From Pseudomonas extremaustralis (lineage in GTDB: Bacteria > Pseudomonadota > Gammaproteobacteria > Pseudomonadales > Pseudomonadaceae), in NCBI RefSeq assembly GCF_900102035.1, contig NZ_LT629689.1, forward strand, positions 1,302,001 through 1,366,000: 64,000 bases of DNA, read 5' to 3'. Under the pieces are notes generated by a model, which was given only the letters and a program-made list of their open reading frames with translations, made no database searches and was not told where the DNA came from. Shown piece by piece: positions 8,057 through 59,003 of the stretch. The translations under genes and the position numbers were made by a program. Position 1 is the first letter of the stretch; every line of letters begins with the position of its first letter.

Positions 8057-8085
8057 AGCCGCCCAGCGACAAGGTCGGGGCGGCT
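8057..8085. terminator. Hairpin between hydroxyacid dehydrogenase and phosphotransferase genes
   Basis: AGCCGCCC at 8057-8064 pairs with GGGCGGCT at 8078-8085, and an inner CGAC/GTCG stem closes a three-base loop. It lies 44 bases beyond the end of the upstream leftward gene. No clear T run follows on either strand, so it is at best a weak or Rho-assisted terminator. Confidence 0.4.
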
Positions 8086-8128
8086 TAATAGGTTAGCGTG
8101 TTGAAGGGTGATCAGCGTGCCTGATCGG

Positions 8129-9082: not shown

Positions 9083-9158
9083 GGGAAGGCTCTTCCAGAG
9101 GGGCTTTGATGGAAGAGAGTATGCACATTTTGCCAGATGTTTCGGCTATCCCCTGTTG

Positions 9159-9190
9159 AAAAAGCGTCGCGGCTGACGGCTCGCGACGCT
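9159..9190 (-). terminator. Intrinsic terminator after the 69-residue orphan gene
   Basis: On the minus strand AGCGTCGCG (9190-9182) pairs with CGCGACGCT (9171-9163), followed by TTTT. It begins 13 bases after the stop codon of the small leftward gene at 9203-9412. Confidence 0.75.
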
Positions 9191-9202
9191 GTTTGAAGAG
9201 GC

Positions 9203-9412
9203 TTAACCGATTCGCGCGTAGGGGATCAGGGTGGGCCTGGATTTGGGCGCCCGGTATTCGGTGCCATTGAAAGGGAAGCTGGGCGGCTCGGGTTGCTGTG
9301 GGGTCGGGGCGTTTTTCTGGTTGATTTGCGCCTCGATGTGTTGCGAAACGGTGTCCACCATCAGGCCGGTATTGAAGAAGGGGTTATGAAAGTTTGGCAG
9401 TATGAGACTCAT
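9203..9412 (-). CDS. Small protein of unknown function, 69 residues
   Basis: I do not recognise a family. I chose the ATG at 9412 rather than the upstream in-frame one at 9574 because it has a clear AGGAG eight bases before it, while the extra N-terminal part is Cys-rich and unlike a natural start. The protein begins MSLILPNFHNPFFNTG, is rich in Pro, Asn and Gln in the middle (NAPTPQQPEPPSF), and has no signal peptide or membrane segment. A dedicated terminator follows, which supports it being a real gene. Confidence 0.6.
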   Translation of the reverse strand: MSLILPNFHNPFFNTGLMVDTVSQHIEAQINQKNAPTPQQPEPPSFPFNGTEYRAPKSRPTLIPYARIG

Positions 9413-9714
9413 TTCGGGTGCTCCTGGTACAAGGGATCGGTAGGGGGGCATCCCGTCATCCGGCTGGCAGCCGGTTTCGGTATGCGTCTTATGGGTGGCG
9501 CAGCCGTGGCAAGCGTTCCCACGCAAACAAGCCTTGCAATAAAAGCAGCGATGCCCAGTGGTCAGTGGCGACACCCTCCTGGCGCCGCATTCGTCAGCTA
9601 AGTCTTTGCTTATTCAAGAGAATCCCGGACAATCGCGCCCCTTCTAGGGTTGGGGCGCTGCCTGTCGGGTTTTTCTGACTCGCCCCGACCGTGCAAATGC
9701 GGAGATCCGACCGG

Positions 9715-10992: not shown

Positions 10993-11009
10993 CAGCCGGA
11001 TTCACACCC

Positions 11010-11047
11010 AAAGTCCGATTCGTGGATGCCGCGAGTCGGACTTTTTT
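11010..11047 (+). terminator. Intrinsic terminator of the amino acid permease gene
   Basis: AAAGTCCGA at 11010-11018 pairs with TCGGACTTT at 11036-11044, and the run of T continues to 11047. Inner bases TTCG/CGAG extend the stem with one wobble. Confidence 0.85.
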
Positions 11048-11087
11048 GTGTCATGAAAACCTGATTGGGCTCAACCACAGCCAGGCA

Positions 11088-12788: not shown

Positions 12789-12823
12789 AAAAACGCCGCG
12801 TATCTTGCGATACGCGGCGTCCT
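12787..12823. terminator. Bidirectional terminator between the SulP gene and acnB
   Basis: A perfect 12-base stem (ACGCCGCGTATC at 12793-12804, GATACGCGGCGT at 12809-12820) closes a four-base loop. Seven A residues on the left give a U run for the leftward acnB transcript; the right side has only CCTTT, so it is stronger for acnB. Confidence 0.85.
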
Positions 12824-12839
12824 TTACATCAACACACCC

Positions 12840-15440
12840 TTAGGCTTGCAGCACCGGGATGTTGGCGTTTGCAGCGCTTTCACGGAACTCGGCGATCTGA
12901 TCGAAACTCAGGTAGCGATATACGTCGCTGGCCATGGTGTTGATCTTCGCGGCGTATTCCATGTACTCCTCGACGGTCGGCAGGCGACCCAGGATCGAAG
13001 CTACCGACGCCAGCTCGGCCGAAGCCAGGTAGACGTTGGCGCCATCGCCCAGACGGTTCGGGAAGTTACGGGTCGAAGTCGACACAACAGTCGAATTCGG
13101 TTCTACACGTGCCTGGTTACCCATGCACAGCGAGCAGCCCGGCATTTCCATGCGCGCGCCAGCCTTGCCGTAGATGCCGTAGTAGCCTTCTTCGGTCAGT
13201 TGGTGAGCGTCCATCTTGGTCGGCGGCGACAGCCACAGACGGGTTGGCAGCTGACCCTTGACCTGATCCAGCAGTTTACCGGCAGCGCGGAAGTGACCGA
13301 TGTTGGTCATGCACGAACCGATGAACACTTCGTCGATCTTCTCGCCAGCAACGCTGGACAGCAGACGGGCGTCGTCCGGGTCGTTTGGCGCGCAGAGCAC
13401 AGGCTCTTTGATGTCGGCCAGGTCGATCTCGATCACTTCGGCGTATTCCGCGTCGGCATCGGCCACCATCAGCTCCGGGTTGGCGACCCAGGCTTCCATC
13501 GCTTGGGCGCGACGTTCCAGGGTGCGTGCATCGCCGTAGCCTTCGCCGATCATCCAGCGCAGCAGGGTGATGTTGGAGTTCAGGTATTCGGTGATCGACT
13601 CTTTGGACAGCTTGATGGTGCAACCGGCAGCCGAACGTTCAGCCGAGGCGTCGGACAGCTCGAAGGCTTGTTCGATGCTCAGGTTGTCCAGGCCTTCGAT
13701 TTCCAGGATGCGGCCGGAGAAGGCGTTCTTCTTGCCTTTCTTCTCTACGGTCAGCAGGCCAGCCTGGATCGCGTAGTAAGGAATGGCGTGAACCAGGTCA
13801 CGCAGGGTGATGCCAGGTTGCATTTTGCCTTTGAAGCGCACCAGGATCGATTCCGGCATGTCCAGTGGCATGACGCCAGTGGCTGCGGCGAACGCTACCA
13901 GGCCCGAACCGGCCGGGAACGAGATGCCCATCGGGAAACGGGTGTGGGAGTCACCACCGGTACCGACGGTGTCCGGCAGCAGCATGCGGTTCAGCCAGCT
14001 GTGGATGATACCGTCGCCTGGACGCAGCGATACACCGCCACGGGTCATGATGAAGTCAGGCAGGGTGTGGTGGGTGGTCACGTCGATCGGCTTAGGATAG
14101 GCCGCGGTGTGGCAGAAGGACTGCATCACCAGGTCGGTCGAGAAGCCCAGGCATGCCAGGTCTTTCAGTTCGTCACGGGTCATTGGACCGGTGGTGTCCT
14201 GGGAACCCACGGTGGTCATCTTAGGCTCGCAGTAGGTGCCTGGACGAACGCCAGCCACGCCACAGGCCTTGCCGACCATCTTCTGCGCCAGGGTGAAACC
14301 CTTGGTGCTTGCGGCAGGTGCTTCAGGCTTCTTGAACAGGTCGGACGATGGCAGACCCAGCTCGGCACGTGCCTTCTCGGTCAGGCCGCGGCCGATGATC
14401 AGCGGGATACGGCCGCCGGCGCGGACTTCGTCCAACAGGACCGGGGTCTTCATTTCGAAGGTGGCCAGGACTTCGTCGGTACCGTGCTTGCAGACTTTGC
14501 CAGCATGCGGGTACAGGTCGATCACGTCGCCCATGTTCAGCTTGGAGACGTCAAACTCGATTGGCAGTGCGCCAGCATCTTCCATGGTGTTGTAGAAGAT
14601 CGGAGCGATCTTGCTGCCGAAGCAGAAGCCGCCTGCACGCTTGTTCGGCACGTAAGGAACGTCGTCGCCGAAGAACCACAGTACGGAGTTGGTTGCCGAC
14701 TTACGCGACGAACCGGTACCGACCACGTCGCCGACGTAGGCGATCGGGAAGCCTTGGCCGCGCATTTCTTCGATCTGCTTCATCGGGCCGGTCTTGCCTT
14801 GCTCGTCCGGCACGATGCCGTCGCGAGCCATTTTCAGCATGGCCAGGGCGTGCAGCGGGATGTCAGGGCGGGACCAGGCGTCCGGGGCAGGGGACAGGTC
14901 GTCGGTGTTGGTTTCGCCGGAAACCTTGAACACGCGCAGGCTGATCTTGTCGGCCAGGGTCGGACGGTTCTTGAACCACTCGCCGTCGGCCCAGGACTGG
15001 ATCACGGCCTTGGCGTGCACGTTGCCGTTCTTGGCTTTTTCGGCCACGTCGTGGAACGCGTCGAACATCAGCAGGGTGTGCTTGAGTTGGGCGGCGGCGA
15101 CAGGTGCCAGTTCGGCGTTGTCGAGCAGGTCGACCAACGTCACGATGTTGTAGCCGCCTTGCATGGTGCCGAGCAGTTCAACAGCGCGTTTCTTGTCGAT
15201 CAGGGGGGAAGTGGCTTCGCCCTTGGCCAGGGCAGACAGGAAACCAGCTTTGACGTAGGCAGCTTCGTCAACACCTGGTGGAATGCGGTTGGTGATCAGG
15301 TCAACGAGAAATTCTTCTTCGCCAGCCGGGGGATTTTTCAGCAGCTCGACCAGGCCTGCGGTTTGTTCGGCATTAAGCGGCTGGGGAACGATTCCCAGTG
15401 CTGCACGCTCTTCGATATGTTTGCGATAGGCTTCAAGCAC
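12840..15440 (-). CDS. acnB: Bifunctional aconitate hydratase 2 / 2-methylisocitrate dehydratase
   Basis: This 866-residue AcnB interconverts citrate and isocitrate in the TCA cycle and usually also hydrates 2-methyl-cis-aconitate. The N-terminal HEAT-like domain ([15 protein letters not shown]) precedes the swivel domain and the catalytic domains. Iron-sulfur ligands appear in [12 protein letters not shown] and in CSLCMGNQ near the C terminus. I take the GTG at 15440 as the start because it gives the family's usual N terminus and has GAGG nine bases upstream; the longer ATG frame at 15467 adds nine unlikely residues. The gene is leftward, alone, with a long structured leader. AcnB is known in pseudomonads to be iron-regulated post-transcriptionally; that is family knowledge. 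Confidence 0.97.
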
Positions 15441-15840
15441 AGTTATTACCCTCATCAGTGGTCCCACGGGGGACGCTCATCCAGAAATGAACGGCACGCA
15501 TGCGCTCGGGGGCTTTTTGGGCCGCAAAGCCAGCGCTGCCGGCATTCCCTACAGAAGCTGCTTTCAAAGTTTTACGCCTGCAGAACGGAGCTGATGAGGG
15601 TTGGCGCTGATGATCGACCTGGTGGGTCGTTCATTACCGCCAACACCGTTCTGAAGGAAAGACTGTGCTCGTGACGCTTTGAAAACAGCTTCCAGCGGAT
15701 TATTGGCGCCTTACAAGGCCGGATGATTCTACGGCAAAAAAAATCTAAAGGTAAGTTGCCAAGCCAAGTTTGACGGGTGATGAAGGTTAGACAAAGGGCT
15801 AAGATGGTGCACTTTTTCGCTGATCTGCGTGCTGTTGCCC
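15441..15840. other. acnB leader/promoter region with structured element
   Basis: These 400 bases between divergent genes hold no convincing coding frame. They include the Shine-Dalgarno sequence for acnB, the multi-part inverted repeat at 15581-15653, and an AT-rich stretch near 15730-15750 (GCAAAAAAAATCTAAAGG) where promoters for either gene could lie. No sigma70 promoter could be fixed with correct spacing. Confidence 0.5.
15581..15653. ncRNA. Putative structured RNA element in the acnB leader
   Basis: Three nested helices can be read: CAGAACGG (15581-15588) with CCGTTCTG (15646-15653), GTTGGCG (15600-15606) with CGCCAAC (15638-15644), and CGACC (15615-15619) with GGTCG (15625-15629). Together they give 20 base pairs with an 11-by-1 internal loop. 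It lies about 140 bases upstream of the acnB start and could fold in RNA from either strand. No known riboswitch family is recognised, so the RNA role is inference. Confidence 0.4.
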
Positions 15841-46378: not shown

Positions 46379-47260
46379 TCAGACCCGTTCGATGGCGCGC
46401 TCGCCGAACAACCCGGCAGGCCGCACCAGCAGGAACAGCAAGGCCAGGACGTAGGGCACCCAGTTTTCTATGCCGCTGCCGATGAGCGGGCCGAGGTAGA
46501 TCTCGGCGACTTTCTCACTGGCGCCGATGATCAACCCGCCGACAATCGCGCCGCCGATGGAAGAAAAGCCACCGATGATCAGCACCGGCAGGGCCTTGAG
46601 CACCACCAGCGACAGCGAGAACTGCACGCCCAGGCGCGCGCCCCAGAGCAACCCGGCCACCAGGCCGACAAACCCCGCCACGGCCCAGACCAGCGCCCAG
46701 ATGCGCGGCAGGCGGATACCGATGGAAATGGAGGCCAGGGGATCGTCGGCCACGGCGCGCAACGACAGGCCCACACGTGTTTTGTTGAATAGCAACGACA
46801 GGGCGATCACCAGCACGGCGGCGGTGCCGGCGGCGAACACGTCGAATTGCGAGAGCAGCATGCCGCGGATTTCCAGCGGTTCGTCGGCGATGCCCAGGTC
46901 CAGCCCATGCACCTGCGCGCCCCAGAGAAACTGCGCGAACCCTTCGACCAAGTAAGACAGCCCCAGGGTGGCCATGAACAGGATGATCGGCGGGCGATTG
47001 ACCAGGGGCCGCAGCACCACTTTTTCGATCAGCAACGCCAGCACCACCATGCTCGCCAGGGTGGCCAGGAACGCCCAGAAGAACGGCACATTGCGTTCCA
47101 GCAGGCTGACGAACGTCAGCGCGGCGAACAGCACCATGGCGCCCTGGGCAAAGTTGAACACCCCCGAGGCCTTGTAGATCAGCACAAAGCCGATCGCCAC
47201 CAGGGAATACATCACGCCCGCCAGCAGCCCGCCGATCAGCACTTCAAAGAAAAATTCCAT
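46379..47260 (-). CDS. Branched-chain-type ABC transporter permease (LivH-like)
   Basis: This 293-residue permease has about eight helices. It shows LivH features: the N-terminal LIGGLLAGVMYSLVAIGFVLIYKASGVFNFAQG region split across helices 1-2, and LKALPVLIIGGFSSIGGAIVGG near the C terminus, which includes the ATPase-coupling loop. I start at MEFFFEVLIGG (ATG 47260), two bases after the ATPase gene's stop. A longer frame from 47368 overlaps the ATPase gene and is rejected. Confidence 0.92.
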   Translation of the reverse strand: MEFFFEVLIGGLLAGVMYSLVAIGFVLIYKASGVFNFAQGAMVLFAALTFVSLLERNVPFFWAFLATLASMVVLALLIEKVVLRPLVNRPPIILFMATLGLSYLVEGFAQFLWGAQVHGLDLGIADEPLEIRGMLLSQFDVFAAGTAAVLVIALSLLFNKTRVGLSLRAVADDPLASISIGIRLPRIWALVWAVAGFVGLVAGLLWGARLGVQFSLSLVVLKALPVLIIGGFSSIGGAIVGGLIIGASEKVAEIYLGPLIGSGIENWVPYVLALLFLLVRPAGLFGERAIERV

Positions 47261-47262
47261 GC

Positions 47263-48039
47263 TCAGGTCCCCAGGTAGGCAGCGATGACATCGGGGTTGG
47301 CGCGCACCTGTTCCGGGGTGCCGTCGCCGATCTTGCGACCGTAGTCGAGCACCACCACGTGGTCGCACAGCCCCATGACCACGCCGATGTCGTGTTCGAT
47401 CAACACCACCGTGGTGCCGAATTCGCGGTTGATGTCGCGGATGAATTGGCTCATCTGCGCTTTCTCCTGGGCGTTCATGCCGGCCATGGGTTCGTCGAGC
47501 AACAGCAGGGTGGGTTCGGCCGCCAGGGCGCGGGCCAGCTCGACCCGTTTTTGCAGGCCGTAGGGCAGGGTGCCGACCAGCACATGGCGCCAGGGATGGA
47601 TCTGCAAAAAGGTGATCACCTTTTCCGCGTGCAGGCGGTGCGCGTCGTCTTCACGGGGCGCCCGGCCCACGCGCAGCATCTGTTCGAGCCAACTGCTGCG
47701 GCGCTTGAGGTTGCGGCCGGTGAGTACGTTGTCGAGCACGCTCATGCCCTTGAACAGCGCGATGTTTTGAAAGGTCCGTGCGATCCCGCCTTCGGCCGCT
47801 TGATGGGCGCGCATGCGCCGCCGGGTCTGGCCGGCGTAGCGGATGCTGCCGCTCTGGGGGTGGTAGACGCCGTTGATCACATTCAGCAGCGAGCTTTTGC
47901 CGGCGCCGTTGGGGCCGATCAGCCCGCAGATATCGCCAGCCTTGACGTCAAAGCTGATGGAGGTGATGGCCTTGATGCCCTTGAACGACAGGGAGATGTC
48001 ATCGAGCCGCAGTAATACCGATTCAGTGGGTGCGTGCAT
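47263..48039 (-). CDS. Branched-chain-type ABC transporter ATP-binding protein (LivG-like)
   Basis: This 258-residue ATPase has Walker A GPNGAGKS near residue 43, the signature region LPYGLQKRVELARAL, Walker B TLLLLDEP and an H-loop LIEHDIGVV. The long insert between Walker A and the signature is typical of LivG. It overlaps the end of the acyl-CoA-synthetase-like gene by 17 bases, showing translational coupling. No LivF partner is present in the operon, so the importer either uses a LivG homodimer or recruits an ATPase encoded elsewhere. Confidence 0.93.
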   Translation of the reverse strand: MHAPTESVLLRLDDISLSFKGIKAITSISFDVKAGDICGLIGPNGAGKSSLLNVINGVYHPQSGSIRYAGQTRRRMRAHQAAEGGIARTFQNIALFKGMSVLDNVLTGRNLKRRSSWLEQMLRVGRAPREDDAHRLHAEKVITFLQIHPWRHVLVGTLPYGLQKRVELARALAAEPTLLLLDEPMAGMNAQEKAQMSQFIRDINREFGTTVVLIEHDIGVVMGLCDHVVVLDYGRKIGDGTPEQVRANPDVIAAYLGT

Positions 48040-49102
48040 GGAGGGCTCGTCGGGCGGATTGAGACAACAGATGGTCGCTGGTCGTGTGGTGCTGCGGTTC
48101 TTGCCAGGCGCGCGGACGAATGCCCAGCGCGCCGAAGAACGCCGCGCTTTCCGGGGTCAGCGGCGGTCCCACCAGCAACGGCACGCGCAGGCGGCTCATG
48201 CCCAGCACATCACGCAACGGGCGCCGCACCAGCCAGTGCCCGAGCCAGCGGCGCACGGCCCAGCGGCTCGGTTGCAGGGCCCAGTGGTACAGGCGATGGC
48301 TGAAGGTGCCCGGCATCGGCAGGCGTTCACGCACCCACAGTTCCAGGCGCCCATAGGATTCACGGGTGCCCAGTACCAGGGTAGGGCCGAGTTCCCGGCG
48401 GTCGGTATCGCGGGTGGCGAGGGCCTCGGGGAAATTCAGGCGAAAGCCGGCGTGCAGCCAGGGTGCGAGCAGGTAGCGTGCCTGTCCGCTGGCGGCGAAC
48501 ACCCGCGCGGCCAGGGCCTCCTCATCGGCGCTCAAGTGTTCGCGCTCGACCAGCGCACGGGCGCCGGCGAGCAACTGATCGTGGTTCAAGCGCAGGGGCG
48601 TGTCGGCATAAAAGACGAACGCGGTGCGGCCCCATTGCGTGGCGCAGGCCGGTGGCGGTGTGGTCGCGATCAAGTCGGCATAGGCGATCAAGCCGTCGTC
48701 CAGGTGCTGATTCAGGCCACGCCCGTCGAGGTACAGCACCACCTGGCGCTCATCGAGTTGTTGCAACGCATCCAGGTCTTGCGCCAACACAAAGCGCGGC
48801 CGCAGCTCGGCCAGCAACGCGCGGTTATCACGCTCGGGGTCCAGCAGCGTGACGCTGCCACCCAACCACTGCGCGGCCAGCGCCAGCAACAACGCTTCGT
48901 GGCGCGCCTGGCTGATGATCAGCACATTATCGTCAGGGCCAAAGTTGCGTTGGTGCAGGGCTGCGGCCAGCTGGGCGACCTCATCGGCCAGCTCGCTCCA
49001 GCTGCGCGTGTGCCAGATGCCCAGGCGTTTATAGCGCAAGGCAATCGCCGCGCCTCGGGTTCGGGCTTGAAGCAACAGTGCCTGGGGCAGTGTTTGCGGC
49101 AT
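48023..49102 (-). CDS. Degenerate AMP-binding (acyl-CoA synthetase-like) protein
   Basis: This 359-residue protein aligns with the N-terminal part of long-chain acyl-CoA synthetases: LPQALLLQARTRGAAIALR, WSELADEVAQLAAALHQR, LALAAQWLGGSVTLLD and PLRDVLGMSRLRVPLLVGPPLTPESAAFF are all recognisable. The ATP-binding P-loop TSGTTGxPK is not present; the equivalent place reads GRTAFVFYADTPLRLNH. The protein ends before the YGxTE adenylate motif and lacks the C-terminal lid. It is therefore unlikely to be an active ligase. It keeps a strong GGAGG ribosome binding site, a sigma54-like promoter and overlap with the ATPase gene, so it seems retained rather than decaying. A regulatory or chaperone role is possible. 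Confidence 0.8.
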   Translation of the reverse strand: MPQTLPQALLLQARTRGAAIALRYKRLGIWHTRSWSELADEVAQLAAALHQRNFGPDDNVLIISQARHEALLLALAAQWLGGSVTLLDPERDNRALLAELRPRFVLAQDLDALQQLDERQVVLYLDGRGLNQHLDDGLIAYADLIATTPPPACATQWGRTAFVFYADTPLRLNHDQLLAGARALVEREHLSADEEALAARVFAASGQARYLLAPWLHAGFRLNFPEALATRDTDRRELGPTLVLGTRESYGRLELWVRERLPMPGTFSHRLYHWALQPSRWAVRRWLGHWLVRRPLRDVLGMSRLRVPLLVGPPLTPESAAFFGALGIRPRAWQEPQHHTTSDHLLSQSARRALHARTH

Positions 49103-49135
49103 GGGGGCCTCCTTCGGGGTTGATGCGAAGGGGAT

Positions 49136-49151
49136 TGCACACGCCGTGCCA
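49136..49151 (-). promoter_or_regulatory. Sigma54-like promoter of the acyl-CoA-synthetase-like/ABC operon
   Basis: Read leftward: TGGCACG-GCGT-GTGCA, matching the RpoN consensus at all but one position with GG and GC ten bases apart. It lies 34 bases upstream of the first gene's start codon. Confidence 0.75.
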
Positions 49152-49236
49152 GGGGGATAAGTGCTTTTAATTCAATGAGATAGTTGGATTTTTTTCGGGG
49201 TGGGTCTGTGTGGATTCAGCACAAGCTGTCCAACTA

Positions 49237-49254
49237 CTGTTGTTGCAACAACAG
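49237..49254. promoter_or_regulatory. Palindrome, candidate enhancer-binding site
   Basis: CTGTTGTTGCAACAACAG is a perfect 18-base palindrome centred about 95 bases upstream of the -24 element of the sigma54-like promoter. That is the usual distance for an RpoN activator's binding site. Confidence 0.55.
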
Positions 49255-49491
49255 CCGATAGAGGGTGTGCCTGACCTGTACGAGCGCGTCCGTCCCGATT
49301 GCCACTGACGGAGTCATTGCGCAGCCCTGTTGAGTGATGTCATTATGCGATCGCTTGCCTATTAAGTGGCTGTTCCTCAGCATCATCCGCGAGCTTATCT
49401 CCCTATTTTCACTTATTTTTTTCGCCGACGATCACCCGCTCGGGCGTTTGCCGGTGGGTACCTGTACTCGACGCTTTGACAAGAGATTGCC

Positions 49492-49998
49492 GTGTTATCG
49501 ATCAGCGAATTCAAGCAATACCGGATTTTCTGGGTATGGCAGCAAGTCACTCCGGACGTGCGCCAGGCCCTGATCAGTTTTTGGCAGGACAACGCGGCGA
49601 TCAAGGACGCGTTCGAGGCTTGGCGGCGCACCTTCGAGGTGGCCTGTGTGGCCTTGAACCCCAGCGGACAGATCATTGGCGTGAGTTCGGTGTACAGCGC
49701 CCTCGGGGCGGGGGCGCCTTACTGGTTCTATCGCACCTTTATCCGTAAGGACTGCCGCGACGTGGGCCTCGCGCAGCGCCTGTTCACCGGTACTCGGCAA
49801 CAATTGGCCCTGGCCTATACCGATGAGCCCCAGGCCCCGGTCGGCATGATGGTGGTTCTCGAAAACCCGAAACTGGAACGCCCGTCGGGTACCCGTATCA
49901 ACCAGCGCGGGGGCCTTTCATTCCTCGGCTGCAACGAGCATGGCCAGAGCGTCTGGCACCTGTTGTTCCAGTCATCGGCTCGCCAGGAGGCCCCATGA
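49492..49998 (+). CDS. GNAT-like acyltransferase
   Basis: This 168-residue protein has a GNAT-like layout: a beta strand (GQIIGVSSVYSAL), then YWFYRTFIRKDCRDVGLAQRLF, where RDVGLA stands at the acetyl-CoA loop RGxGxG/A, and a later strand VGMMVVLENPKLERP. The loop lacks two of the usual glycines, so activity is uncertain. The start is GTG 49492 with an AAGAGA upstream. Its stop overlaps the start of the sulfotransferase gene (ATGA), so both are made together. The substrate is unknown; the operon context suggests a surface or secreted product. Confidence 0.75.
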   Translation: MLSISEFKQYRIFWVWQQVTPDVRQALISFWQDNAAIKDAFEAWRRTFEVACVALNPSGQIIGVSSVYSALGAGAPYWFYRTFIRKDCRDVGLAQRLFTGTRQQLALAYTDEPQAPVGMMVVLENPKLERPSGTRINQRGGLSFLGCNEHGQSVWHLLFQSSARQEAP

Positions 49999-50816
49999 TG
50001 GCCGAACGAACCCTGCACTTTATCTCCGGGTTGCCACGTTCCGGTTCGACGTTGCTGTCGGCCTTGTTGCGGCAGAACCCGCGTTTTCACGCGCACATGA
50101 GCAGCCCCTTGGCCGGACTGGTCACCAACCTGATCAATGGCATGGGCGGCAGCAATGAATATTCGTTGTTCATCTCCGACCCGCAGCGCCAGCGCATCCT
50201 GCGCGGCCTGTTCGAGCAGTTCTACGGCGAAGAGTTCGCCCAGCCGGTGGTCTTCGACAGCAACCGCGCCTGGTGCGCGCAGATGCCCCTGCTGCACAGT
50301 CTGTTTCCCCAGAGCAAGGTGATCGCCTGTGTGCGTGACGTGCCCTGGATCATCGACAGCGTTGAGCGGCTGGTGCAGAGCAACATGTTGTTGCCTTCGG
50401 CGCTGTTCAACTTCCAGGCCGGCGGCACGGTGTATAGCCGCGCCGATATGCTGGCGAATGCCGAAGGCATGCTCGGCTACCCCTACAACGCGCTCAAACA
50501 GGCTTTTTATGGCGCCCATGCCAGCCGTTTGTTGCTGGTGCGTTACGAAACCCTGGCCAGCGATCCGCAGGCGGTGCTGGACGGCATTTACGCGTTTATC
50601 GACGAGCCGGCCTTCAGCCACGACCTGCACAACATCCAGTTCGACGCCCAAGAATTCGACAAGCGCGCCGGCACCCCTGGCCTGCACGATGTCAGGCCCA
50701 GCGTGCAGGCGCTGCCTCGGCCGACGCTGTTGCCTCCAGATGTATTTGCCCGTTTTACCAACGATGCCTTCTGGCAACACCCACAAAACAATACGCAAGG
50801 GGTTCGAATTCTATGA
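49995..50816 (+). CDS. PAPS-type sulfotransferase family protein
   Basis: This 273-residue protein has the 5'-phosphosulfate binding loop GLPRSGSTLL at residues 12-21 and a 3'-phosphate segment VIACVRDVPWIIDSVER near residue 108. The C-terminal third (LLVRYETLASDPQAVLDGIYAFI) is typical of sulfotransferase_3 proteins. No signal peptide is present, so it acts in the cytoplasm, presumably moving sulfate from PAPS to a hydroxyl or amine. It is coupled to the GNAT gene (overlap, with AGGAGG before the ATG) and lies 43 bases before the autotransporter gene. The acceptor is unknown. Confidence 0.85.
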   Translation: MMAERTLHFISGLPRSGSTLLSALLRQNPRFHAHMSSPLAGLVTNLINGMGGSNEYSLFISDPQRQRILRGLFEQFYGEEFAQPVVFDSNRAWCAQMPLLHSLFPQSKVIACVRDVPWIIDSVERLVQSNMLLPSALFNFQAGGTVYSRADMLANAEGMLGYPYNALKQAFYGAHASRLLLVRYETLASDPQAVLDGIYAFIDEPAFSHDLHNIQFDAQEFDKRAGTPGLHDVRPSVQALPRPTLLPPDVFARFTNDAFWQHPQNNTQGVRIL

Positions 50817-50859
50817 ACGGCCCGGATGCGACTCGAAGTACAGCACTGGAGCGGTCTAG

Positions 50860-53800
50860 ATGAACAAAGACATTTATCGGTTGGTATGGAACACCAGCCT
50901 GGGGGCGTTGCAGGTGGTTTCCGAGGCCGCGAAGTCGAAAAGCTGCGGTGGTTCGGGAACGCGCAGTCTTGGCGGGCAGTGCAAGGCCATGGTCTGGCCC
51001 CTGGCATTGCTGTCGTTGAGCATGGCGAGTTCCGCGTGGGCAATTCCCCGGATTACCGTCACCACGGGCGCCGACGCCGGCGCCGGGTCGTTGCGCGAAG
51101 GCTTGAGTTCGTTTGGTACGGTGCTGATCGACCCCAGTGTCAGCAGCATTGTCCTGAGTTCGAATGTGGCGGCGGCCAACGGGCTGACCTCGTTGACCGC
51201 CGCCGCACCGTTGACCATTGCGGGCGCGAGCCTGGCTGGCAGCGGCGGCTCGCTGAGCTTGAACGGCTCTAACGCCGGCACGCTAACAACGGCAATTTCG
51301 GGCGTGTTTACCGGCACTGCTTCCAATACGGGGTCGGCGTCCAATGGTGTTACAGGCGCCGACGGTGCCTATTCCCGAACAGGTACCGCTGGCACAGGTA
51401 GCGTAGGGACTGACGGCAGTTATGTTGCCCACACGGTCAATGCTTCCAGCGCCGTCAGTGGGAGCTTCTTTGCCCTCACCAACAATGCCACGGTGACCGG
51501 CGGGGCGGGTATGTCCATAGTGGCGGCAGGAAGCGGCGGAAGAGGCGGAAGAGGCGGCAACAGCGACTATTTATATTCGGGGACGCACGGTGGCACCGGC
51601 GGCACCGGCGGCGCGGGTAGCAGCGGTGGCGTAAGCGCTGGCGGTGGCGCAGGTGTTTCGGGGAGTTTTTTTGCGCTGGTCAACAACTCCACTATTTCCG
51701 GCGGTCACGGTGCCAATGGTGTTGCCGGTGGCGCGGGCGGAGCGGGAGGCAACGGTGGCGATTGGGGAAAATATGGCGGCAACGGCGGTAACGGCGGCCT
51801 TGGCGGTAATGGCGGTACCGGCGGTGCAGGCGGTGCTGGCGTATCGGGTGCCGGTATGCAGGTGTTCAATACGGGGACGATTCAAGGCGGCAACGGCGGC
51901 TTGGCAGGCGCCGCAGGCCAGGGGGAACCGCAGGCTCGGCAGGGTATGGCTATCGCTACACAGGTTCGTCAGGCCTAGCGGGCAGCTCCGGCCTGGCAGG
52001 CACCGCCGGCGCGGGCGGAGTAGGGCTTGTGTCCACGGGCAATTCGACTATCCATAACGCCGGGACCATCGCCGGCGGCTTCGCCAATGGCGGAGCGGGT
52101 GTGCGGGCCAATGCCATCGAGCTGTCCGGGGGCGGCAACACCCTGGTCCTGGAAGCCAACTCGGTCATCCTCGGCAACGTCGTGAGCCACTCAGGCAGCG
52201 CCGATACATTGGCCTTTGGCGGCGATATCAACGCCGTAAGCAACCGCTTCGACCTCGGCCAACTGGGGACCGTGGGCAGTGCCGCGCAGTACCAAGGGTT
52301 TGACAGTTTTGAAAAAGACGGCACCAGCGCCTGGACGCTGACGGGCACCGACACCGTCAGCAGGATCTGGGCGGTGAAGGCCGGCACGCTGGTCCTGGAC
52401 GACAGCGCACAGTTGGCGGGCGCGCTGGGTATCCAGAACAGCGGCACGCTCAACACGGGCACCGCGTCCATCGCCGGCGGCGTGATCAACGCCGGCAACC
52501 TGAGCATCGGCACCGTCGCGACGCCTTATGCCACGTTGTCGATTGGCGGCGATTACACCCAAGGCAGCCATGGCGCGTTGAATATCAACGCGTTCAGCAC
52601 GTCGCAGTACAGCAAGCTTGCGATCACGGGCAATGCGTTCCTGGCAGGAGCTCTCAACGTCGATGTGAAGTCCGGCAACACCCTGGGCATCGGTAATCAA
52701 CTGCAAAATGTGCTCACGACGACTGGCCATATCAACGGCACCTTCGACAGCGTGAGCGACAATAGCCTGCTGTTCAATTTCACCCCGACCTACACCACCA
52801 ACAGCGTCAGCCTGAATGTGGTCGCCGATGGTACTGGTGGCGGCAACAGCGGCGGCGGGGGCAATACGGTGCTGGGCAGCGTCCAGGCCCTTGGCAACTC
52901 GCCGGCTCGCGGCGCCGCGCAGGTGCTGGACGGTATTGTCGCCAGCAACCCCGGTGGGCGCCTGGCCGGTTATTTCATCCCGTTGAGCACCGAGGCTGAA
53001 GTCTCCAATGCCGCGACGCAGACCTTGCCGATACTGGCGGGCGGCTCCACTGAATCGGCGCGTACCGCGTTGAGTGGCATCAACGGCGTGATCCAGGGAC
53101 GCAGCGAGGCGGTTCGCGGGTTGTCGTCGGGCGATGCGGCGTTCACCGACCAGCATCTGTGGATCAAACCGTTCGGCAGCTGGGCCGACCAGGAAAGCCG
53201 TGGCGGTCTCGCCGGGTTCAACTCGACGGTGGGCGGTCTGGCGTTCGGCCTGGATGCCAGCCTCAACGACCGCTGGCTGCTCGGCACGGCGTTCATCTAC
53301 GCCAATGTGGACACGCGCAGCAGTGGCGACACCGCGCGCCAACAGTTGAAGACCAATGTGTATCAGTTGGTCGGCTACGGCACGTACCACCTGGACGACA
53401 CCACCGACCTGAACTTCCAGATCGACGGCGGCCAGAACCATAACGAAGGCTCACGGGATATCGACTTTGCCGGGTTGCAGGCCAAGTCCAACTACGATTC
53501 CTGGACGGCCCACGCTGGCGCATCCCTGGACCGAACCTTCCACTTGAGTACGGCCACGCGCTTCACGCCGTCGCTGCGTGCCGACTACACCTGGATCAAA
53601 GACGAGGCTTACCGCGAAAAAGGCGCGCAAGACTTGGACCTGAGCGCCAAGAGCCGCTCCACCGACCAGTTCATCCTGGGCGTCGACGGCAAGCTCAGCC
53701 ATGACTTGACCCAACAGGTCAGTGTCAGTGGCAATCTGGGCGTGGGCTACGATTTCCTGGCCAGCCGCGACTCGATCAGCACCAGCTTCGCCGGGGCGCC

Positions 53801-53975
53801 GGGTGCCAGCTTCACCACCTATTCGGGCGATCCGCAACGGTGGTTGGTGCGCGGCGGTACGGGGCTGAACTATCAGGTCAACGGCCAGTTGCAATTGGGT
53901 GTGCGCTATGACGTGGAGAAACGCACTGACTACCTCAATCAGACCGCTTCAGCCGAAGCGCGCTGGGCGTTCTAG
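50860..53975 (+). pseudogene. ESPR autotransporter (type Va), interrupted by one frameshift
   Basis: The reading frame from ATG 50860 (GGAG eight bases upstream) encodes an extended signal peptide, MNKDIYRLVWNTSLGALQVV, then a cleavage site ASSAWA, and a passenger very rich in Gly, Ala, Asn and Ser with GGxGG repeats at about residues 225-350. It stops at 51978. A second frame, open through 52029-53975, continues the Gly-rich passenger, a pertactin-like strand region and a 12-strand beta-barrel domain (from LWIKPFGSWADQESRGG to the terminal aromatic AEARWAF). The two join if one G is added to the GGGGG run at 51921-51925, giving about 1038 residues. It may be a sequencing error, phase variation, -1 ribosomal slippage or a true loss. 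Confidence 0.85.
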
Positions 53976-53979
53976 CCTG

Positions 53980-54840
53980 GTGTTGCGCGCACGCGGCCTG
54001 CTGACGGGGCTGTTCAGCCTGTTGCTGGCCGGGTGCGCGGCTGCGCCGAATCAGCTCGAACTCACCCGACAGGCGCAGACGGTTGCGCAGGCCGGCGGGC
54101 TGGTCATGGCGCAGGTGCCGACCGAGCGTTTTGTCCTCACCGGTTTTTACCGGATCACCCGCCCGGACCTGCCATTGACGGTGTATATCGAAGGCGACGG
54201 CTTTGCCTGGCGCACGCGCAGCCAGCCCTCGTCGAACCCTACCCCGATCAATGCGCAAGGGCTCAAACTCGCCGCAGCGGACCCGGCACCGAATGTGCTG
54301 TACCTCGCTCGGCCCTGCCAATTCACGCCCATGGCCGTCAACCCGCGCTGCGAGGTCAGTTATTGGACCGGCAAGCGTTTCGCCGAAGACGTCGTCGTGA
54401 CGATGAACCAGGCTATCAATCAGTACACCGCCCGCGTACCTGGGCAGCCGATTCATCTGGTCGGCTACTCGGGCGGTGCCACTATCGCCGCGCTGCTCGC
54501 CGCCAGGCGCGGGGATGTCATCAGCCTGCGCACGGTGGCGGGTAATCTGGATGTGGACGAGGTCAATCGCCTGCACCGGGTAACGCCTATGCCGGGCTCA
54601 CTCAACGCCATCGACATCGCCCCGCGATTGATCGACCTGCCGCAAATCCACTACACCGGCAGTGACGATTCGGTCGTGCCCCCGGTGATTGCCCAGCGCT
54701 TCGCCGCTGCGACCGGCGGGCACTGTACGCAGGTGCGCGTCGTGCCGACGATGCGGCATGACAGTGACTGGGCGCGGGCGTGGCCGGCGCTATCGAATGA
54801 ACCGCCACGCTGTATGAAGAGAGCCGACGATGAACGATGA
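53980..54840 (+). CDS. Lipoprotein with alpha/beta-hydrolase domain
   Basis: This 286-residue protein starts at GTG 53980, four bases after the autotransporter stop, and opens with a lipoprotein signal (LLTGLFSLLLAGC, lipid-modified Cys19). The hydrolase nucleophile is Ser164 in VGYSGG, with an acidic residue in YTGSDDSVVPP and a histidine in MRHDSDW completing a plausible triad. The protein should be anchored in the outer or inner membrane facing the periplasm. Its tight coupling to the autotransporter suggests a role in passenger release, modification or lipid processing, but no such function is shown. The frame upstream of the GTG lies inside the autotransporter gene. Confidence 0.82.
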   Translation: MLRARGLLTGLFSLLLAGCAAAPNQLELTRQAQTVAQAGGLVMAQVPTERFVLTGFYRITRPDLPLTVYIEGDGFAWRTRSQPSSNPTPINAQGLKLAAADPAPNVLYLARPCQFTPMAVNPRCEVSYWTGKRFAEDVVVTMNQAINQYTARVPGQPIHLVGYSGGATIAALLAARRGDVISLRTVAGNLDVDEVNRLHRVTPMPGSLNAIDIAPRLIDLPQIHYTGSDDSVVPPVIAQRFAAATGGHCTQVRVVPTMRHDSDWARAWPALSNEPPRCMKRADDER

Positions 54841-55024
54841 ATCCATGCTGCCCGGCTCCCCGCGTTTTGGTCACGAGGGCGCCGTGATCTGGCTCACCGG
54901 GCTGTCGGCCTCGCTGCAACCGCAGTTACGGCTTGAAACCGCGAGGGAATCCCTGGAGGCGAGCGTGGCAACGCTGCTGGGCTATGTGCTGGAAAAAATA
55001 CCGCGACCGCTCAAGGCCGATTAA
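54830..55024 (+). CDS. Small protein with APS-kinase-like start, 64 residues
   Basis: It overlaps the lipoprotein gene by 11 bases and follows a GAGAG ribosome binding site. Residues 15-27 (HEGAVIWLTGLSA) resemble the strand leading into the Walker A loop of adenylylsulfate kinases, which normally continue GSGKST; here the text is ASLQPQ, so nucleotide binding is lost. Residues 43-55 (LEASVATLLGYVL) could match the following helix and strand. It may be a remnant of a kinase or a coincidental resemblance. The placement at the end of a sulfotransferase operon is notable. Confidence 0.5.
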   Translation: MNDESMLPGSPRFGHEGAVIWLTGLSASLQPQLRLETARESLEASVATLLGYVLEKIPRPLKAD

Positions 55025-55038
55025 GCGCAATCACGTCG

Positions 55039-55064
55039 GGTCGCCCGTTGAACGGGCGACCTTT
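55039..55064. terminator. Hairpin between the autotransporter operon and aer
   Basis: GGTCGCCCG (55039-55047) pairs perfectly with CGGGCGACC (55053-55061) around a TTGAA loop, followed by TTT. It lies between convergent genes and probably ends transcription of the rightward operon. Confidence 0.75.
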
Positions 55065-55075
55065 CGCGGTGCGAA

Positions 55076-56641
55076 TCAGCGATTGAAGCGTTCGACCAGC
55101 GCATATTGGGTGGCAGCGGTGTTGGTCAGCTCTTTGCTCAGGTCGTTGGATTGATGGGCCTGTAGCGAGGTCTGGTCGGCCAGTTCAGCGATGGTGGTGA
55201 TGTTGCGGCTGATCTCCTCGGCAACCGCGCTTTGTTCTTCGGTGGCGGCGGCGATCTGGGTGGTCATTTCGGTGATGTGCGAAACGGCTTCGCTGATGCC
55301 CACCAGGGCCTGGTCGGCTTCCAGTACCCAGGCCACGCCTTCCTGGGCCTGGCGCTGGCCGTGTTCCATGCTTTGCACGGCATTGTTGGAGGACGCCTGC
55401 AACTGGGTGATCAGCCCATGGATCTGCATGGTGGACTGGGAGGTGCGCTGAGCCAGCTGGCGCACTTCATCGGCCACCACCGCAAAGCCCCGGCCCATAT
55501 CCCCGGCGCGTGCGGCTTCAATCGCGGCGTTGAGCGCCAACAGGTTGGTTTGATCGGCGATGCCTTTGATCACATCGACCACGCTGCCGATCTCGTCGCT
55601 GTCCCTGGCCAATTGCGCCACGGTGGCGCCGGTCTCGCCGACCATGGCGGACAGGCGTTCGATGGCTTGACGGGTATCGCGCGCCACCTCACGGCCACGC
55701 CCGGTCAGCACATTGGCTTGCTGGGTGGCATCGGCGGTGCGTTGCACGTGACTGGCGACTTCCTGGGTGGTCGCGGCCATCTGGTTGACTGCGGCGGAGA
55801 CCTGTTCGGTTTCCGTGCGCTGACGATCCAGGCCTTTGGAGCTGGCGTGGGCCAGTTGATCGGATTGCCCGGCCAGGGCGCTGAGTTGTTCGGCGCTGTC
55901 CTGCAGGCGCGTAAGGCAGGTCTTCAGGCGCGCGGTCTGGCTGAGGAACGCGGTTTCCAAACGTCCTTGGGGGCCGCTTGCGTCACTGTACATTTGTGCG
56001 ATCAAGGCATCCGAGGTCGAAGGCTCGACCCCCGCCAGCAGGCGTAAAGTGCTGCCTTGACGCCAGCGCGAGCACAGCAAGCCCACCGGCACCGCGACCG
56101 CCACGGCGACCGCAATGGCCACCGGTGCGCTGAGGAACAGGCCAGCCACGCTGCCCGCCACGCCGGTCACCATGTAGGGCACGCAGCCCAGGGTTGCCGG
56201 TAGCCAGGCATTGCGGCGCGGCACGCCGGCCTTGCCCTGGCTGATGCGCTGGTACAACGCCTGGGCGCGGCGGATTTCATCGGCGGTGGGCTTGACCCGG
56301 ACCGACTCGAAACCCACCACTTGGTTGCCGTCGAATATCGGCGTGACGTAGGCGTTGACCCAATAGTGATCACCGTTCTTGGAGCGGTTCTTGACGATGC
56401 CCATCCAGGGCTGGCCTTGTTTGAGTGCACTCCACATGTGCGCAAATATGGCGGGAGGTACATCGGGGTGACGCACAATGTTCTGGGGGGCGCCGATCAG
56501 ATCGGCGCGGTTGAAACCGCTGATATCAACAAATGCGTCATTACAGTAAGTAATGACACCGCGTACATCGGTGGCGGAGATGAGTTTTTGCTGCGGCGCG
56601 AGGGATATCTCACGCTGTGTGACAGGCTGATTGTTGCGCAT
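55076..56641 (-). CDS. aer: Aerotaxis receptor
   Basis: This 521-residue methyl-accepting protein has an N-terminal PAS domain at about residues 15-120 ([20 protein letters not shown], then [18 protein letters not shown]), which in Aer binds FAD and senses redox state. A hydrophobic anchor at about 150-190 follows, and a long signalling coiled coil ends in the conserved hairpin tip ([22 protein letters not shown] split around residue 385). There is no periplasmic sensor domain, as expected for Aer. The length equals that of the P. aeruginosa receptor as I recall it. It is a single leftward gene. Confidence 0.94.
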
Positions 56642-56804
56642 TCCGACTACTCCCTGGTTGCACTCATACCATCGGCGCCGACAGGCAAAAGGTTAATGCA
56701 CATTTGGCATTTAGCCAGCCGCCGGTCAAAAGCCTGAAATTTCCCGATGAAACACCTCATAATGGCCGCCATTTTCGTTTAGCCCGTTATTCTGGTGTGC
56801 CCCC

Positions 56805-59003
56805 ATGGAAATCAAGGTCAACTTTCTCGACAACCTCCGACTTGAAGCCAAGTTCGACGACTTCACGGTGATTGCCGACCAACCCATCCGCTATAAAGGC
56901 GATGGTTCGGCACCGGGGCCGTTCGATTACTTCCTGGCGTCGTCGGCCTTGTGCGCGGCGTACTTCGTGAAGTTGTACTGCGAAACACGCAACATCCCCA
57001 CGGACAATATCCGCCTGTCGCAGAACAACATCGTCGACCCGGAAAACCGCTACAACCAGATCTTCAAGATCCAGGTGGAGTTGCCGGCGGACATCAGCGA
57101 CAAAGACCGCCAGGGCATTTTGCGTTCCATCGAACGTTGCACCGTGAAAAAAGTGGTGCAGGCCGGGCCCCAGTTCGTCATCGAAGAAGTGGAAAACCTT
57201 GACGCCGATGCCCAGGCGTTGCTGATGCCCAACTCGACGTCGGAGGCGGGCACTTATATCGTCGGCAAGGACCTGCCGCTGGAGCAGACCATCGCCAATA
57301 TGTCCGGCATCCTTGCCGGCCTTGGCATGAAGATCGAGATCGCCTCGTGGCGCAATATCGTGCCCAACGTCTGGTCGCTGCACATTCGCGACGCGCACTC
57401 GCCGATGTGCTTCACCAACGGCAAGGGCGCGACCAAGGAAGGCGCGTTGGCGTCGGCGCTGGGCGAGTTCATCGAGCGTCTCAACTGCAACTTCTTCTAT
57501 AACGATCAATTCTGGGGTGAAACCCTGGCCAATGCGCCGTTCGTGCATTACCCGGACGAGCGCTGGTTCCAGCCCGGCGGCAACGACGAACTGCCGGCGG
57601 AAATCCTCGACGCCTACTGCCTGAAGATCTACAACCGCGACGGCGAGCTGCGTGGCTCGCATTTGTACGACACCAACTCCGGCAACGAAGCGCGCGGCAT
57701 CGTGTCGTTGCCGTTCGTGCGTCAGTCGGACGGCGAGGTGGTGTACTTCCCGTCCAACCTGATCGAAAACCTCTACCTCAGCAACGGCATGAGCGCTGGC
57801 AACACCTTGGCCGAAGCCCAGGTGCAGTGCCTGTCGGAGATTTTCGAGCGGGCGGTGAAGCGCGAAATCATCGAAGGCGAATTCGCCCTGCCGGATGTGC
57901 CGGCAGAGGTGTTGGCCAAATACCCCAAGATCCTGGCCGGCATTCAAGGCCTGGAAGCCCAGGGCTTCCCGGTGCTGGTCAAGGACGCGTCCCTGGGCGG
58001 TGAGTTCCCGGTGATGTGCGTGACCCTGATGAACCCGCGTACCGGCGGCGTGTTCGCCTCGTTCGGCGCGCACCCGAGCCTGGAAGTGGCGCTGGAACGC
58101 AGCCTCACCGAACTGCTGCAAGGTCGTAGTTTCGAGGGCCTTAACGACTTGCCACCGCCGACCTTCGAGGGCCAAGCGGTCACCGAGCCGAACAACTTCG
58201 TCGAGCACTTCATCGATTCCAGCGGCGTGGTCTCGTGGCGCTTCTTCAGTGCCCAGTCGGACTATGAATTTGTCGAGTGGGACTTCTCCGGCCAGGGCGA
58301 AAACTCCAACGCCGAAGAGGCCGCGACGCTGTTCGGCATTCTGGAAAACATGGGCAAAGAGTCCTACATGGCGGTGTACGAGCACCTCGGCGCCACCGCT
58401 TGCCGCATCCTGGTGCCGGATTATTCGGAAATCTACCCGGTGGACGACCTGATCTGGGACAACACCAACAAGGCGCTGTTTTTCCGCGAGGACATTCTCA
58501 ACCTGCACCGCCTGGACGATGAGGAGTTGCAGGCGTTGGTCGAGCGCCTGATCGAAAGCGAGCTGGACGACTACACCGATATCACCACCCTGATCGGCAT
58601 CGAGTTCGACGACAACACCGCCTGGGGCCAACTGACCATCCTGGAGTTGAAGCTGCTGATCTTCCTCGCCTTGCGGCAGTTTGAAGAGGCCAAGGAGTGC
58701 GTGGAGATGTTCTTGCAGTACAACGACAACACCGCCGAGCGCGGCCTGTTTTACCAGGCGATGAACGCGGTGCTGGAAATGGAACTGGACGACGACTTGG
58801 AACTGGCGGATTACGAAGCCAACTTCCGCCGCATGTTTGGCAATGAACGCATGGATGCGGTGATCGGCTCAGTCAACGGCAGTGTGCGGTTCCACGGGTT
58901 GACGCCGACCAGCATGAAGCTGGAAGGGTTGGATCGGCATTTGCGCTTGATTGAGAGCTATAAGAAGCTGCATGGCGCGCGGGCTGCGGTCTCTATCCGT
59001 TAA
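56805..59003 (+). CDS. ycaO: OsmC-YcaO fusion protein
   Basis: This 732-residue protein joins an OsmC-like domain (about 1-140, with FDYFLASSALCAAYFVKLYC and RCTVKK carrying the two redox cysteines) to a full YcaO protein (about 155-732). The second part aligns with E. coli YcaO over its whole length: VPNVWSLHIRDAHSPMCFTNGKGATKEGALASALGEFIERL runs through the ATP-binding region, and the C-terminal part (ALRQFEEAKECVEMFLQYN) is TPR-like. E. coli YcaO is linked to RimO-dependent methylthiolation of ribosomal protein S12. No azoline-peptide precursor or partner cyclase lies nearby. The OsmC half may protect or deliver a thiol; that is inference. Confidence 0.92.
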   Translation: MEIKVNFLDNLRLEAKFDDFTVIADQPIRYKGDGSAPGPFDYFLASSALCAAYFVKLYCETRNIPTDNIRLSQNNIVDPENRYNQIFKIQVELPADISDKDRQGILRSIERCTVKKVVQAGPQFVIEEVENLDADAQALLMPNSTSEAGTYIVGKDLPLEQTIANMSGILAGLGMKIEIASWRNIVPNVWSLHIRDAHSPMCFTNGKGATKEGALASALGEFIERLNCNFFYNDQFWGETLANAPFVHYPDERWFQPGGNDELPAEILDAYCLKIYNRDGELRGSHLYDTNSGNEARGIVSLPFVRQSDGEVVYFPSNLIENLYLSNGMSAGNTLAEAQVQCLSEIFERAVKREIIEGEFALPDVPAEVLAKYPKILAGIQGLEAQGFPVLVKDASLGGEFPVMCVTLMNPRTGGVFASFGAHPSLEVALERSLTELLQGRSFEGLNDLPPPTFEGQAVTEPNNFVEHFIDSSGVVSWRFFSAQSDYEFVEWDFSGQGENSNAEEAATLFGILENMGKESYMAVYEHLGATACRILVPDYSEIYPVDDLIWDNTNKALFFREDILNLHRLDDEELQALVERLIESELDDYTDITTLIGIEFDDNTAWGQLTILELKLLIFLALRQFEEAKECVEMFLQYNDNTAERGLFYQAMNAVLEMELDDDLELADYEANFRRMFGNERMDAVIGSVNGSVRFHGLTPTSMKLEGLDRHLRLIESYKKLHGARAAVSIR

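What the first reader, a model, noticed from the sequence alone, without database searches (positions are those of the whole stretch)
49492..55024. GNAT, sulfotransferase, autotransporter, lipoprotein hydrolase and APS-kinase-like gene in one packed unit
Five rightward genes follow with overlaps or short gaps (ATGA overlap, 43 bases, 4 bases, 11-base overlap). They encode two group-transfer enzymes, a glycine-rich ESPR autotransporter, a periplasmic lipoprotein hydrolase and a small protein resembling the start of an APS kinase. Coupling of a PAPS-dependent sulfotransferase to a surface autotransporter suggests that the passenger, or a lipid or glycan it meets, is sulfated and perhaps acylated before or after export. 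I know of no described system with this set. The role is inference.
Basis: partly seen in the sequence, partly recalled or inferred. Interest (0 to 1): 0.7.

Follow-up and report, generated by a model that had tools for sequence, protein, structure and literature searches.

The report
Decayed surface-protein sulfation gene cassette
A Pseudomonas chromosome carries a worn copy of a gene set that probably attaches sulfate to a large bacterial surface protein, and relatives of its key enzyme sit beside very large secreted proteins in many other bacteria, which hints at an overlooked kind of protein modification.

Summary
The five-gene layout is real, with two corrections. The autotransporter (AT) frame is broken (50860-51978 in one frame, 51810-53975 in another), and the 64-aa "APS-kinase-like" ORF is the two ends of an APS kinase whose core is missing. 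Three other Pseudomonas carry an intact radical SAM-GNAT-sulfotransferase-AT run, so the window copy looks decayed. The sulfotransferase (ST) is nearest to protein-tyrosine sulfotransferases by sequence profile and by predicted fold. Of 35 ST loci at 40% identity or more, 30 have an open frame of 900 aa or more within 1 kb (other sulfotransferases: 0 of 19 by the same measure, 5 of 19 by a looser one; random genes: 6 of 178). The partners include ESPR autotransporters and Ig/cadherin-repeat giants. On a Caballeronia plasmid ST, APS kinase and a type I exporter lie together. A Lys-Tyr site in the Gly-rich passenger occurs in 9 of 11 ST-linked ATs and in neither of two close ATs without ST. Best reading: secretion-coupled tyrosine sulfation, as in RaxST-RaxX but on giant surface proteins; the chemistry is inferred. 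The hydrolase belongs to a separate, common AT-hydrolase pairing.

The parts
49492..49998 (+). GNAT-like acyltransferase, 168 aa, GTG start
   Evidence: PF13673 E 0.026, under its cut-off; low-confidence model (pLDDT 61.2) whose Foldseek rows are mostly acetyltransferases and N-myristoyltransferases; relatives in 4 of 398 Pseudomonas genomes, own included, and in none but the own of 299 genomes of the phylum
49995..50816 (+). TPST-like sulfotransferase (ST), 273 aa, apparently intact
   Evidence: PF13469 5.8e-17; PDB profile search and fold search led by tyrosylprotein sulfotransferases; model pLDDT 91.7
50860..51978 (+). Autotransporter, first piece: ESPR signal and Gly-rich passenger, 372 aa
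   Evidence: ESPR PF13018 2.6e-12; single intact ORF in L034, L035, L050
51769..51780 (+). Codons for the Lys-Tyr-Gly-Gly site, candidate acceptor
51810..53975 (+). Autotransporter, second piece in another frame (open frame of 721 aa; first start codon 52029): rest of passenger and beta-barrel
   Evidence: PF03797 9e-47
51921..51925 (+). Run of five G in the overlap of the two AT frames
53980..54840 (+). Putative lipoprotein alpha/beta hydrolase with LLLAGC start and GYSGG, D and H candidates of a triad by eye
   Evidence: family usually beside ATs
54830..55024 (+). APS kinase remnant: both ends joined in frame, core missing
   Evidence: full-length relatives behind the same hydrolase in L131 and L126

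Best explanation
The unit is a decayed copy of a secretion-coupled protein-sulfation cassette. In the intact form a cytoplasmic TPST-like sulfotransferase takes PAPS, made by a nearby or a housekeeping APS kinase, and sulfates tyrosine in the Gly-rich passenger of the autotransporter encoded next to it, most likely the Tyr of the Lys-Tyr-Gly-Gly site, before the protein leaves the cytoplasm for export by the type V route. The GNAT and, in the intact operons, a radical SAM enzyme add or prepare a second modification, perhaps on the neighbouring Lys. In this genome the radical SAM gene is not found, the APS kinase is a remnant and the AT frame is interrupted, so the local product is probably not made, or made only by slippage; the ST is intact and other APS kinases of the genome could feed it. 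The hydrolase comes from a separate, common AT-hydrolase pairing. Shown: anatomy, decay, recurring linkage, TPST-like fold, association of the Lys-Tyr site with ST. Inferred: the chemistry, the acceptor, the timing, the roles of GNAT and radical SAM.
For: Radical SAM-GNAT-ST-AT intact in P. batumici, P. putida 31800 and G415, whose radical SAM protein is 99% identical to one named P. asplenii. Open frame of at least 900 aa, same strand, within 1 kb of the ST match in 30 of 35 loci at 40% identity or more, at least 1500 aa in 24 of 35; same measure for other sulfotransferases 0 of 19, and with distance taken from the whole sulfotransferase frame 31 of 35 against 5 of 19, none of the 19 at 1500 aa; random genes 6 of 178. 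Partners: ESPR autotransporters in L036, L037, L038, L040, L042, passenger-repeat proteins in L041 and L043, DUF4347 plus Ig/cadherin giants in L022, L116, L121. Plasmids: RTX protein-ST-cysC in Nostoc; M10-domain protein-ST-APS kinase-C39 ABC exporter-HlyD in Caballeronia. A parallel AT locus with a TPR-sulfotransferase, the same hydrolase family and a full-length APS kinase (L131). TPSTs first by profile and fold. Lys-Tyr in the passenger of 9 of 11 ST-linked ATs, absent in both close ATs without ST; 13 of the 18 Lys in Gly-rich parts of the 11 are followed by Tyr; of 349 columns 5 separate ST-linked from ST-less, two of them this Lys and Tyr. Four full-length APS kinase matches elsewhere in the genome.
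Against: No chemistry is shown. Five of 35 ST loci lack the adjacent frame: the window (split AT), L112, L113, L114, L120. In the phylum-wide draw alone it is 8 of 13 hits at 40% or more. The 35 are partly close relatives. Relatives at 40% and 36% on a Komagataeibacter and an Acetobacter plasmid have no large neighbour. An APS kinase lies in the stretch held for only 4 of 36 chromosomal ST loci examined. Two of 11 ST-linked ATs (P0269, P0263) lack Lys-Tyr, and of 25 giant frames at other ST loci only two have one Lys-Tyr each, so it is not a general acceptor. The close-family contrast rests on two ST-less sequences (6 of 6 against 0 of 2, Fisher 0.036). Of 17 further close ATs of unknown ST status 11 have Lys-Tyr at the site and 6 do not, among the latter P0252, the closest to the window's AT by identity (82%). 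The TPST catalytic Glu (recalled) is not matched in the alignment.
Confidence: 0.55

Rival explanations
1. The ST sulfates a glycan or lipid carried or met by the surface protein, not a protein tyrosine.
For: Six Pseudomonas giant loci share a gene family next to ST whose member in L022 is a PMT-type glycosyltransferase. Carbohydrate sulfotransferases match the fold too, lower down. The TPST catalytic Glu is not matched.
Confidence: 0.25
2. The neighbourhood is mostly shared mobility or cargo: ST, GNAT and APS kinase travel with large surface-protein genes without acting on them.
For: The units sit at different places and decay readily (window; relic L208); some relatives at 36-51% have no giant neighbour.
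Against: The same pairing recurs with unrelated partners and export routes and in several phyla; the Lys-Tyr site goes with ST.
Confidence: 0.12
3. The AT break in the window is a sequencing or assembly error, or is bridged by slippage, and the window unit still works in part.
For: A run of five G lies in the overlap of the two frames; both halves keep high similarity to intact relatives, up to 82% in the second half; the ST is intact.
Against: APS kinase core and radical SAM gene are gone too, which points to decay.
Confidence: 0.35

Closest known systems
RaxX-RaxST-RaxAB of Xanthomonas (PMC4216712 and PMC6637879, passages read)
   Same: Sulfotransferase in one operon with the export genes of its protein substrate; PAPS from an ATP sulfurylase and an APS kinase; RaxST modelled on TPST2. 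PMC6637879 reports raxST homologues of about 40% identity in diverse contexts in Proteobacteria and Cyanobacteria and presumes other substrates.
   Different: RaxX is a 60-residue precursor exported by a type I system; here the partner is a type V auttransporter of about 1000 aa with GNAT and, in relatives, a radical SAM enzyme. RaxST itself was not compared here.
Eukaryotic tyrosylprotein sulfotransferases TPST1/TPST2
   Different: About 17% identity; catalytic Glu not matched; bacterial, encoded beside its presumed substrate.
TPR-sulfotransferases next to other Pseudomonas ATs (L131, L127, L129, L130)
   Same: Sulfotransfer_3 domain, AT, hydrolase and in L131 an APS kinase in one stretch.
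   Different: 700-aa TPR enzyme and another AT family.
AIDA-I/Aah and TibA/TibC heptosylated autotransporters (recalled, no call)
   Same: A dedicated cytoplasmic transferase encoded beside the AT whose passenger it modifies.
   Different: Heptose, not sulfate; unrelated enzymes.

Membership tests
RaxST-type secretion-coupled sulfation | Sulfotransfer_3 enzyme with PAPS-binding motifs | tested here: met
   PF13469 5.8e-17; P14-R15-G17, R114 and S122 invariant in 44 sequences; that these are the PAPS motifs is recalled
RaxST-type secretion-coupled sulfation | Type I exporter (RaxA/RaxB) in the operon | tested here: not met
   None among the window genes 46379-59003 seen by ORF list and Pfam; a type V AT instead. 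Met in the relative on the Caballeronia plasmid
RaxST-type secretion-coupled sulfation | PAPS supply by APS kinase | tested here: inconclusive
   Local copy is a remnant; four full-length APS kinase matches elsewhere in the genome
RaxST-type secretion-coupled sulfation | Sulfated tyrosine on the exported protein | not testable with these tools
   Needs mass spectrometry
Tyrosylprotein sulfotransferase (TPST) | TPST fold | tested here: met
Tyrosylprotein sulfotransferase (TPST) | Catalytic Glu between the PAPS motifs (recalled) | tested here: inconclusive
   Not matched in the profile alignment to TPST1; the alignment is weak there
Type Va autotransporter | ESPR or signal peptide, passenger and C-terminal barrel | tested here: met
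   PF13018 and PF03797, on two pieces
Type Va autotransporter | One continuous reading frame | tested here: not met
   Two frames
APS kinase | Kinase core with P-loop GKS/GKT | tested here: not met
   WLTGLSAS runs straight into the C-terminal part; no Pfam match
GNAT acyltransferase | GNAT domain over a curated cut-off | tested here: inconclusive
   PF13673 14.9 bits, cut-off 23.6; low-confidence model with mostly acyltransferase matches

The most novel reading that the evidence does not exclude
A multi-enzyme cassette writes a paired mark on adjacent residues of a surface autotransporter: the GNAT acylates Lys and the TPST-like enzyme sulfates Tyr of a Gly-Lys-Tyr-Gly-Gly site, with a radical SAM enzyme of a little-described family adding a third step; and the same ST clade is a general bacterial tyrosine sulfotransferase for giant secreted proteins of several export routes.
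Probability: 0.25. Interest if true: 0.88.

Novelty: new variant of a known kind. Interest (0 to 1): 0.66.

Why it matters
The bacterial tyrosine sulfation met in the papers looked at here is that of RaxX by RaxST, and what the RaxST homologues elsewhere modify was left open (PMC6637879, passages). If this reading is right, a large clade (6974 proteins at E <= 1e-20 among 7997 scored candidates) often has its substrate encoded next door: a giant surface or secreted protein. That makes bacterial protein sulfation directly testable in ordinary soil bacteria and would add a modification to type V secretion.

Tried and rejected
Considered the 64-aa ORF as a small functional protein: rejected as the simplest reading, since both halves align to the two ends of full-length APS kinases above the best of 500 shuffles of each half, in 3 of 3 comparisons. 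Considered the five genes as one fixed unit: rejected, an AT lies in the stretch of 10 of 14 hydrolase loci and the hydrolase in 15 of 20 AT loci, and none of these 34 stretches holds the ST; the hydrolase call in two of the 15 is on the other strand. Tested Lys-Tyr as the acceptor of the whole ST clade: rejected. Sought an empty site: the left neighbour has a strong relative in 1 other of 38 genomes, and the stretch fetched there holds only that gene and ABC genes, so nothing followed. Radical SAM gene in the own genome: no match; that call has no positive control of its own, though the query matches three other genomes. Promoter scan: none found, 1.2 expected; no tRNA in the window. GNAT model: low confidence, used only as weak support. 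Recount: a first version of the control measured distance from the whole sulfotransferase frame while the clade was measured from the match; one search repeats both measures for both sets, and the text gives both.

Paper searches for the linkage (listings only, open-licence library): sulfotransferase with autotransporter 19 papers, with type I secretion and adhesin 8, with APS kinase and surface protein 2, with LEPR-XLL 0, with TPR and autotransporter 0, with type V secretion 4, with genomic neighborhood 2; autotransporter with tyrosine sulfation 2; tyrosine sulfation with RaxST 13; TPST with bacterial 86, 12 listed. I saw no title or abstract start about such a linkage; bodies were not read except passages of PMC4216712 and PMC6637879.

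Rows dropped before counts: L052 and L053 (same places as L035 and L034); L150, one of 20 control sulfotransferases, without a BLAST hit; L122 and L123 (under 30% identity) from the clade; P0238 from the column test because its site is shifted in the alignment; P0242 and P0256 (short) from the passenger alignment; L208 from the Lys-Tyr comparison (no passenger). ST links of P0238, P0249, P0259, P0261, P0263, P0269 and P0274 rest on equal contig lengths, not on read DNA. L209 starts at a contig end, so an ST upstream of its AT is not excluded.

Full report
WHAT IS THERE. Two points differ. The AT is split: ESPR and the Gly-rich start are in 50860-51978, the rest and the barrel in another frame, open 51810-53975. 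The 64-aa ORF aligns with its first part to residues 20-36 and with its second part to residues 166-195 of the 211-residue APS kinase of L131, scores 79 and 80 against shuffle maxima of 41 and 45; the core between is missing. Full-length APS kinases (PF01583 8.7e-64 for L131) stand directly behind the same hydrolase in L131 and L126.

THE INTACT FORM. Three other Pseudomonas, P. batumici (L034), P. putida 31800 (L035) and G415 (L050), carry radical SAM-GNAT-ST-AT in this order with a single AT ORF of 1113, 1026 and 1033 aa. The radical SAM gene (CNLTCEGC, by eye) has no Pfam match at E 0.01 in the two copies scanned; it belongs to a set of 113 database proteins, some of which carry PF04055, and is not found in the own genome. 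A further genome, G354 (L208), keeps only a relic in which part of the radical SAM gene runs into the C-terminal part of the AT. So the window is one of two decayed copies seen. GNAT relatives occur in 4 of 398 Pseudomonas genomes, own included, and in none but the own of 299 genomes of the phylum. A second GNAT copy in P. putida 31800 (L051) stands beside a ShlB/FhaC-type translocator, another type V exporter (PF03865 3.2e-15).

THE ST CLADE AND GIANT SECRETED PROTEINS. I examined 35 distinct ST loci at 40% identity or more: the window, 13 found, 10, one and 10. In 30 a same-strand open frame of at least 900 aa lies within 1 kb of the ST match, in 24 one of at least 1500. The misses are the window, L112, L113, L114 and L120. 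Many of the 35 are related (12 Pseudomonas loci of one type), so the counts are not independent; in the phylum-wide draw alone 8 of 13 hits have the large frame, and one more is the split window copy. Other sulfotransferases: 0 of 19 by the same measure; with distance taken from the whole sulfotransferase frame 5 of 19, against 31 of 35 for the clade, and none of the 19 reaches 1500 aa by either measure. Random genes: 6 of 178. The partners are of several kinds. Dyella, two Pseudoxanthomonas, Lysobacter and Rhodanobacter have an ESPR plus PATR protein whose frame runs off the stretch held, so its barrel was not seen. Variovorax and Sphingopyxis have passenger-repeat proteins upstream of ST. 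L022, L116 and L121 have DUF4347 with Ig or cadherin repeats; beside the one in L022 lie HlyD-type, M50-peptidase/HlyD and outer-membrane OEP genes, and no ABC exporter gene was seen among those scanned. The own genome has such a second ST copy at 4.80 Mb with an APS kinase about 7 kb away. On a Caballeronia plasmid an M10-domain protein, ST, APS kinase, a C39-ABC exporter and HlyD follow each other; on a Nostoc plasmid an RTX protein, ST and cysC. Against this, the Komagataeibacter and Acetobacter plasmid relatives that I looked at (two records of the 15) have no large neighbour, and only 4 of 36 chromosomal ST loci show an APS kinase in the stretch held.

A CANDIDATE ACCEPTOR. In the Gly-rich passenger the ATs of window, L034, L035 and L050 share Lys-Tyr-Gly-Gly; the two close ATs without ST, L124 and L128, differ at the site. 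Of 11 ATs with ST on the same record (four read in DNA, seven by equal contig length) 9 have Lys-Tyr in the passenger, and 13 of the 18 Lys in the Gly-rich parts of the 11 are followed by Tyr. Of 349 columns ungapped in five ST-linked ATs, 5 separate them from the two ST-less ones, and two of these are this Lys and Tyr. Of 20 more distant ATs without ST in the stretch held, L215 has Lys-Tyr within the passenger, and L217 has one before the likely start. Results that do not help: 17 further close ATs have unknown ST status, 11 with the site and 6 without, and P0252, closest to the window's AT by identity (82%), lacks it, while P0238 (81%, ST-linked) has Lys-Tyr-Gly and P0247 (80%, the protein of L124, no ST) has not. 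Of 25 giant frames at other ST loci, two have one Lys-Tyr each. The association is suggestive, not proof.

THE HYDROLASE. Its family rings in 97 of 398 Pseudomonas genomes at E 0.001. In 14 fetched loci an AT lies in the stretch in 10, and in 20 AT loci the hydrolase is present in 15, without this ST. So AT-hydrolase is a pairing of its own. A parallel cassette, L131, joins an AT, a 702-aa TPR-sulfotransferase (Sulfotransfer_3 1.4e-43), a gene with a weak glycosyltransferase-9 match, the hydrolase and an APS kinase, so AT-linked sulfation genes have come together at least twice with different parts.

VERDICT. The most likely mechanism is tyrosine sulfation of the passenger before export, at about 0.55. 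Direct chemistry is missing.

Noticed in passing
L208 (G354:C7:756001-772000), about 6350-8396: Deletion relic: part of the radical SAM gene abuts the C-terminal part of the AT; ST, GNAT and most of the passenger are gone.
   Followed up: partly
L051 (G113:C2), 9886-11931 and 14724-15593: Second GNAT copy beside a ShlB/FhaC-type two-partner translocator, with a minus-strand ORF downstream that looks by eye like a polymorphic-toxin C-terminus.
   Followed up: partly
L022, L116, L119 and other ST-giant loci: Phage tail-collar-domain proteins (PF07484 in L022; look-alikes by eye, in tandem, in L116 and L119) recur beside ST and the giant protein.
   Followed up: no
L244 (Methylomagnum ishizawai plasmid), 6772-15085: A distant relative (34%) of the radical SAM protein, annotated hypothetical, sits between a TauD-type dioxygenase and a non-ribosomal peptide synthetase.
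   Followed up: no
L021 (G000:C1:4796000-4814000): The genome's second ST copy has an open giant partner frame (1948 aa) and an APS kinase, so sulfation capacity may persist there.
   Followed up: partly
window 48023-49102, minus strand: Short AMP-binding protein (359 aa) next to an ABC transporter; only 1 other of 38 genomes has a strong relative.
   Followed up: no
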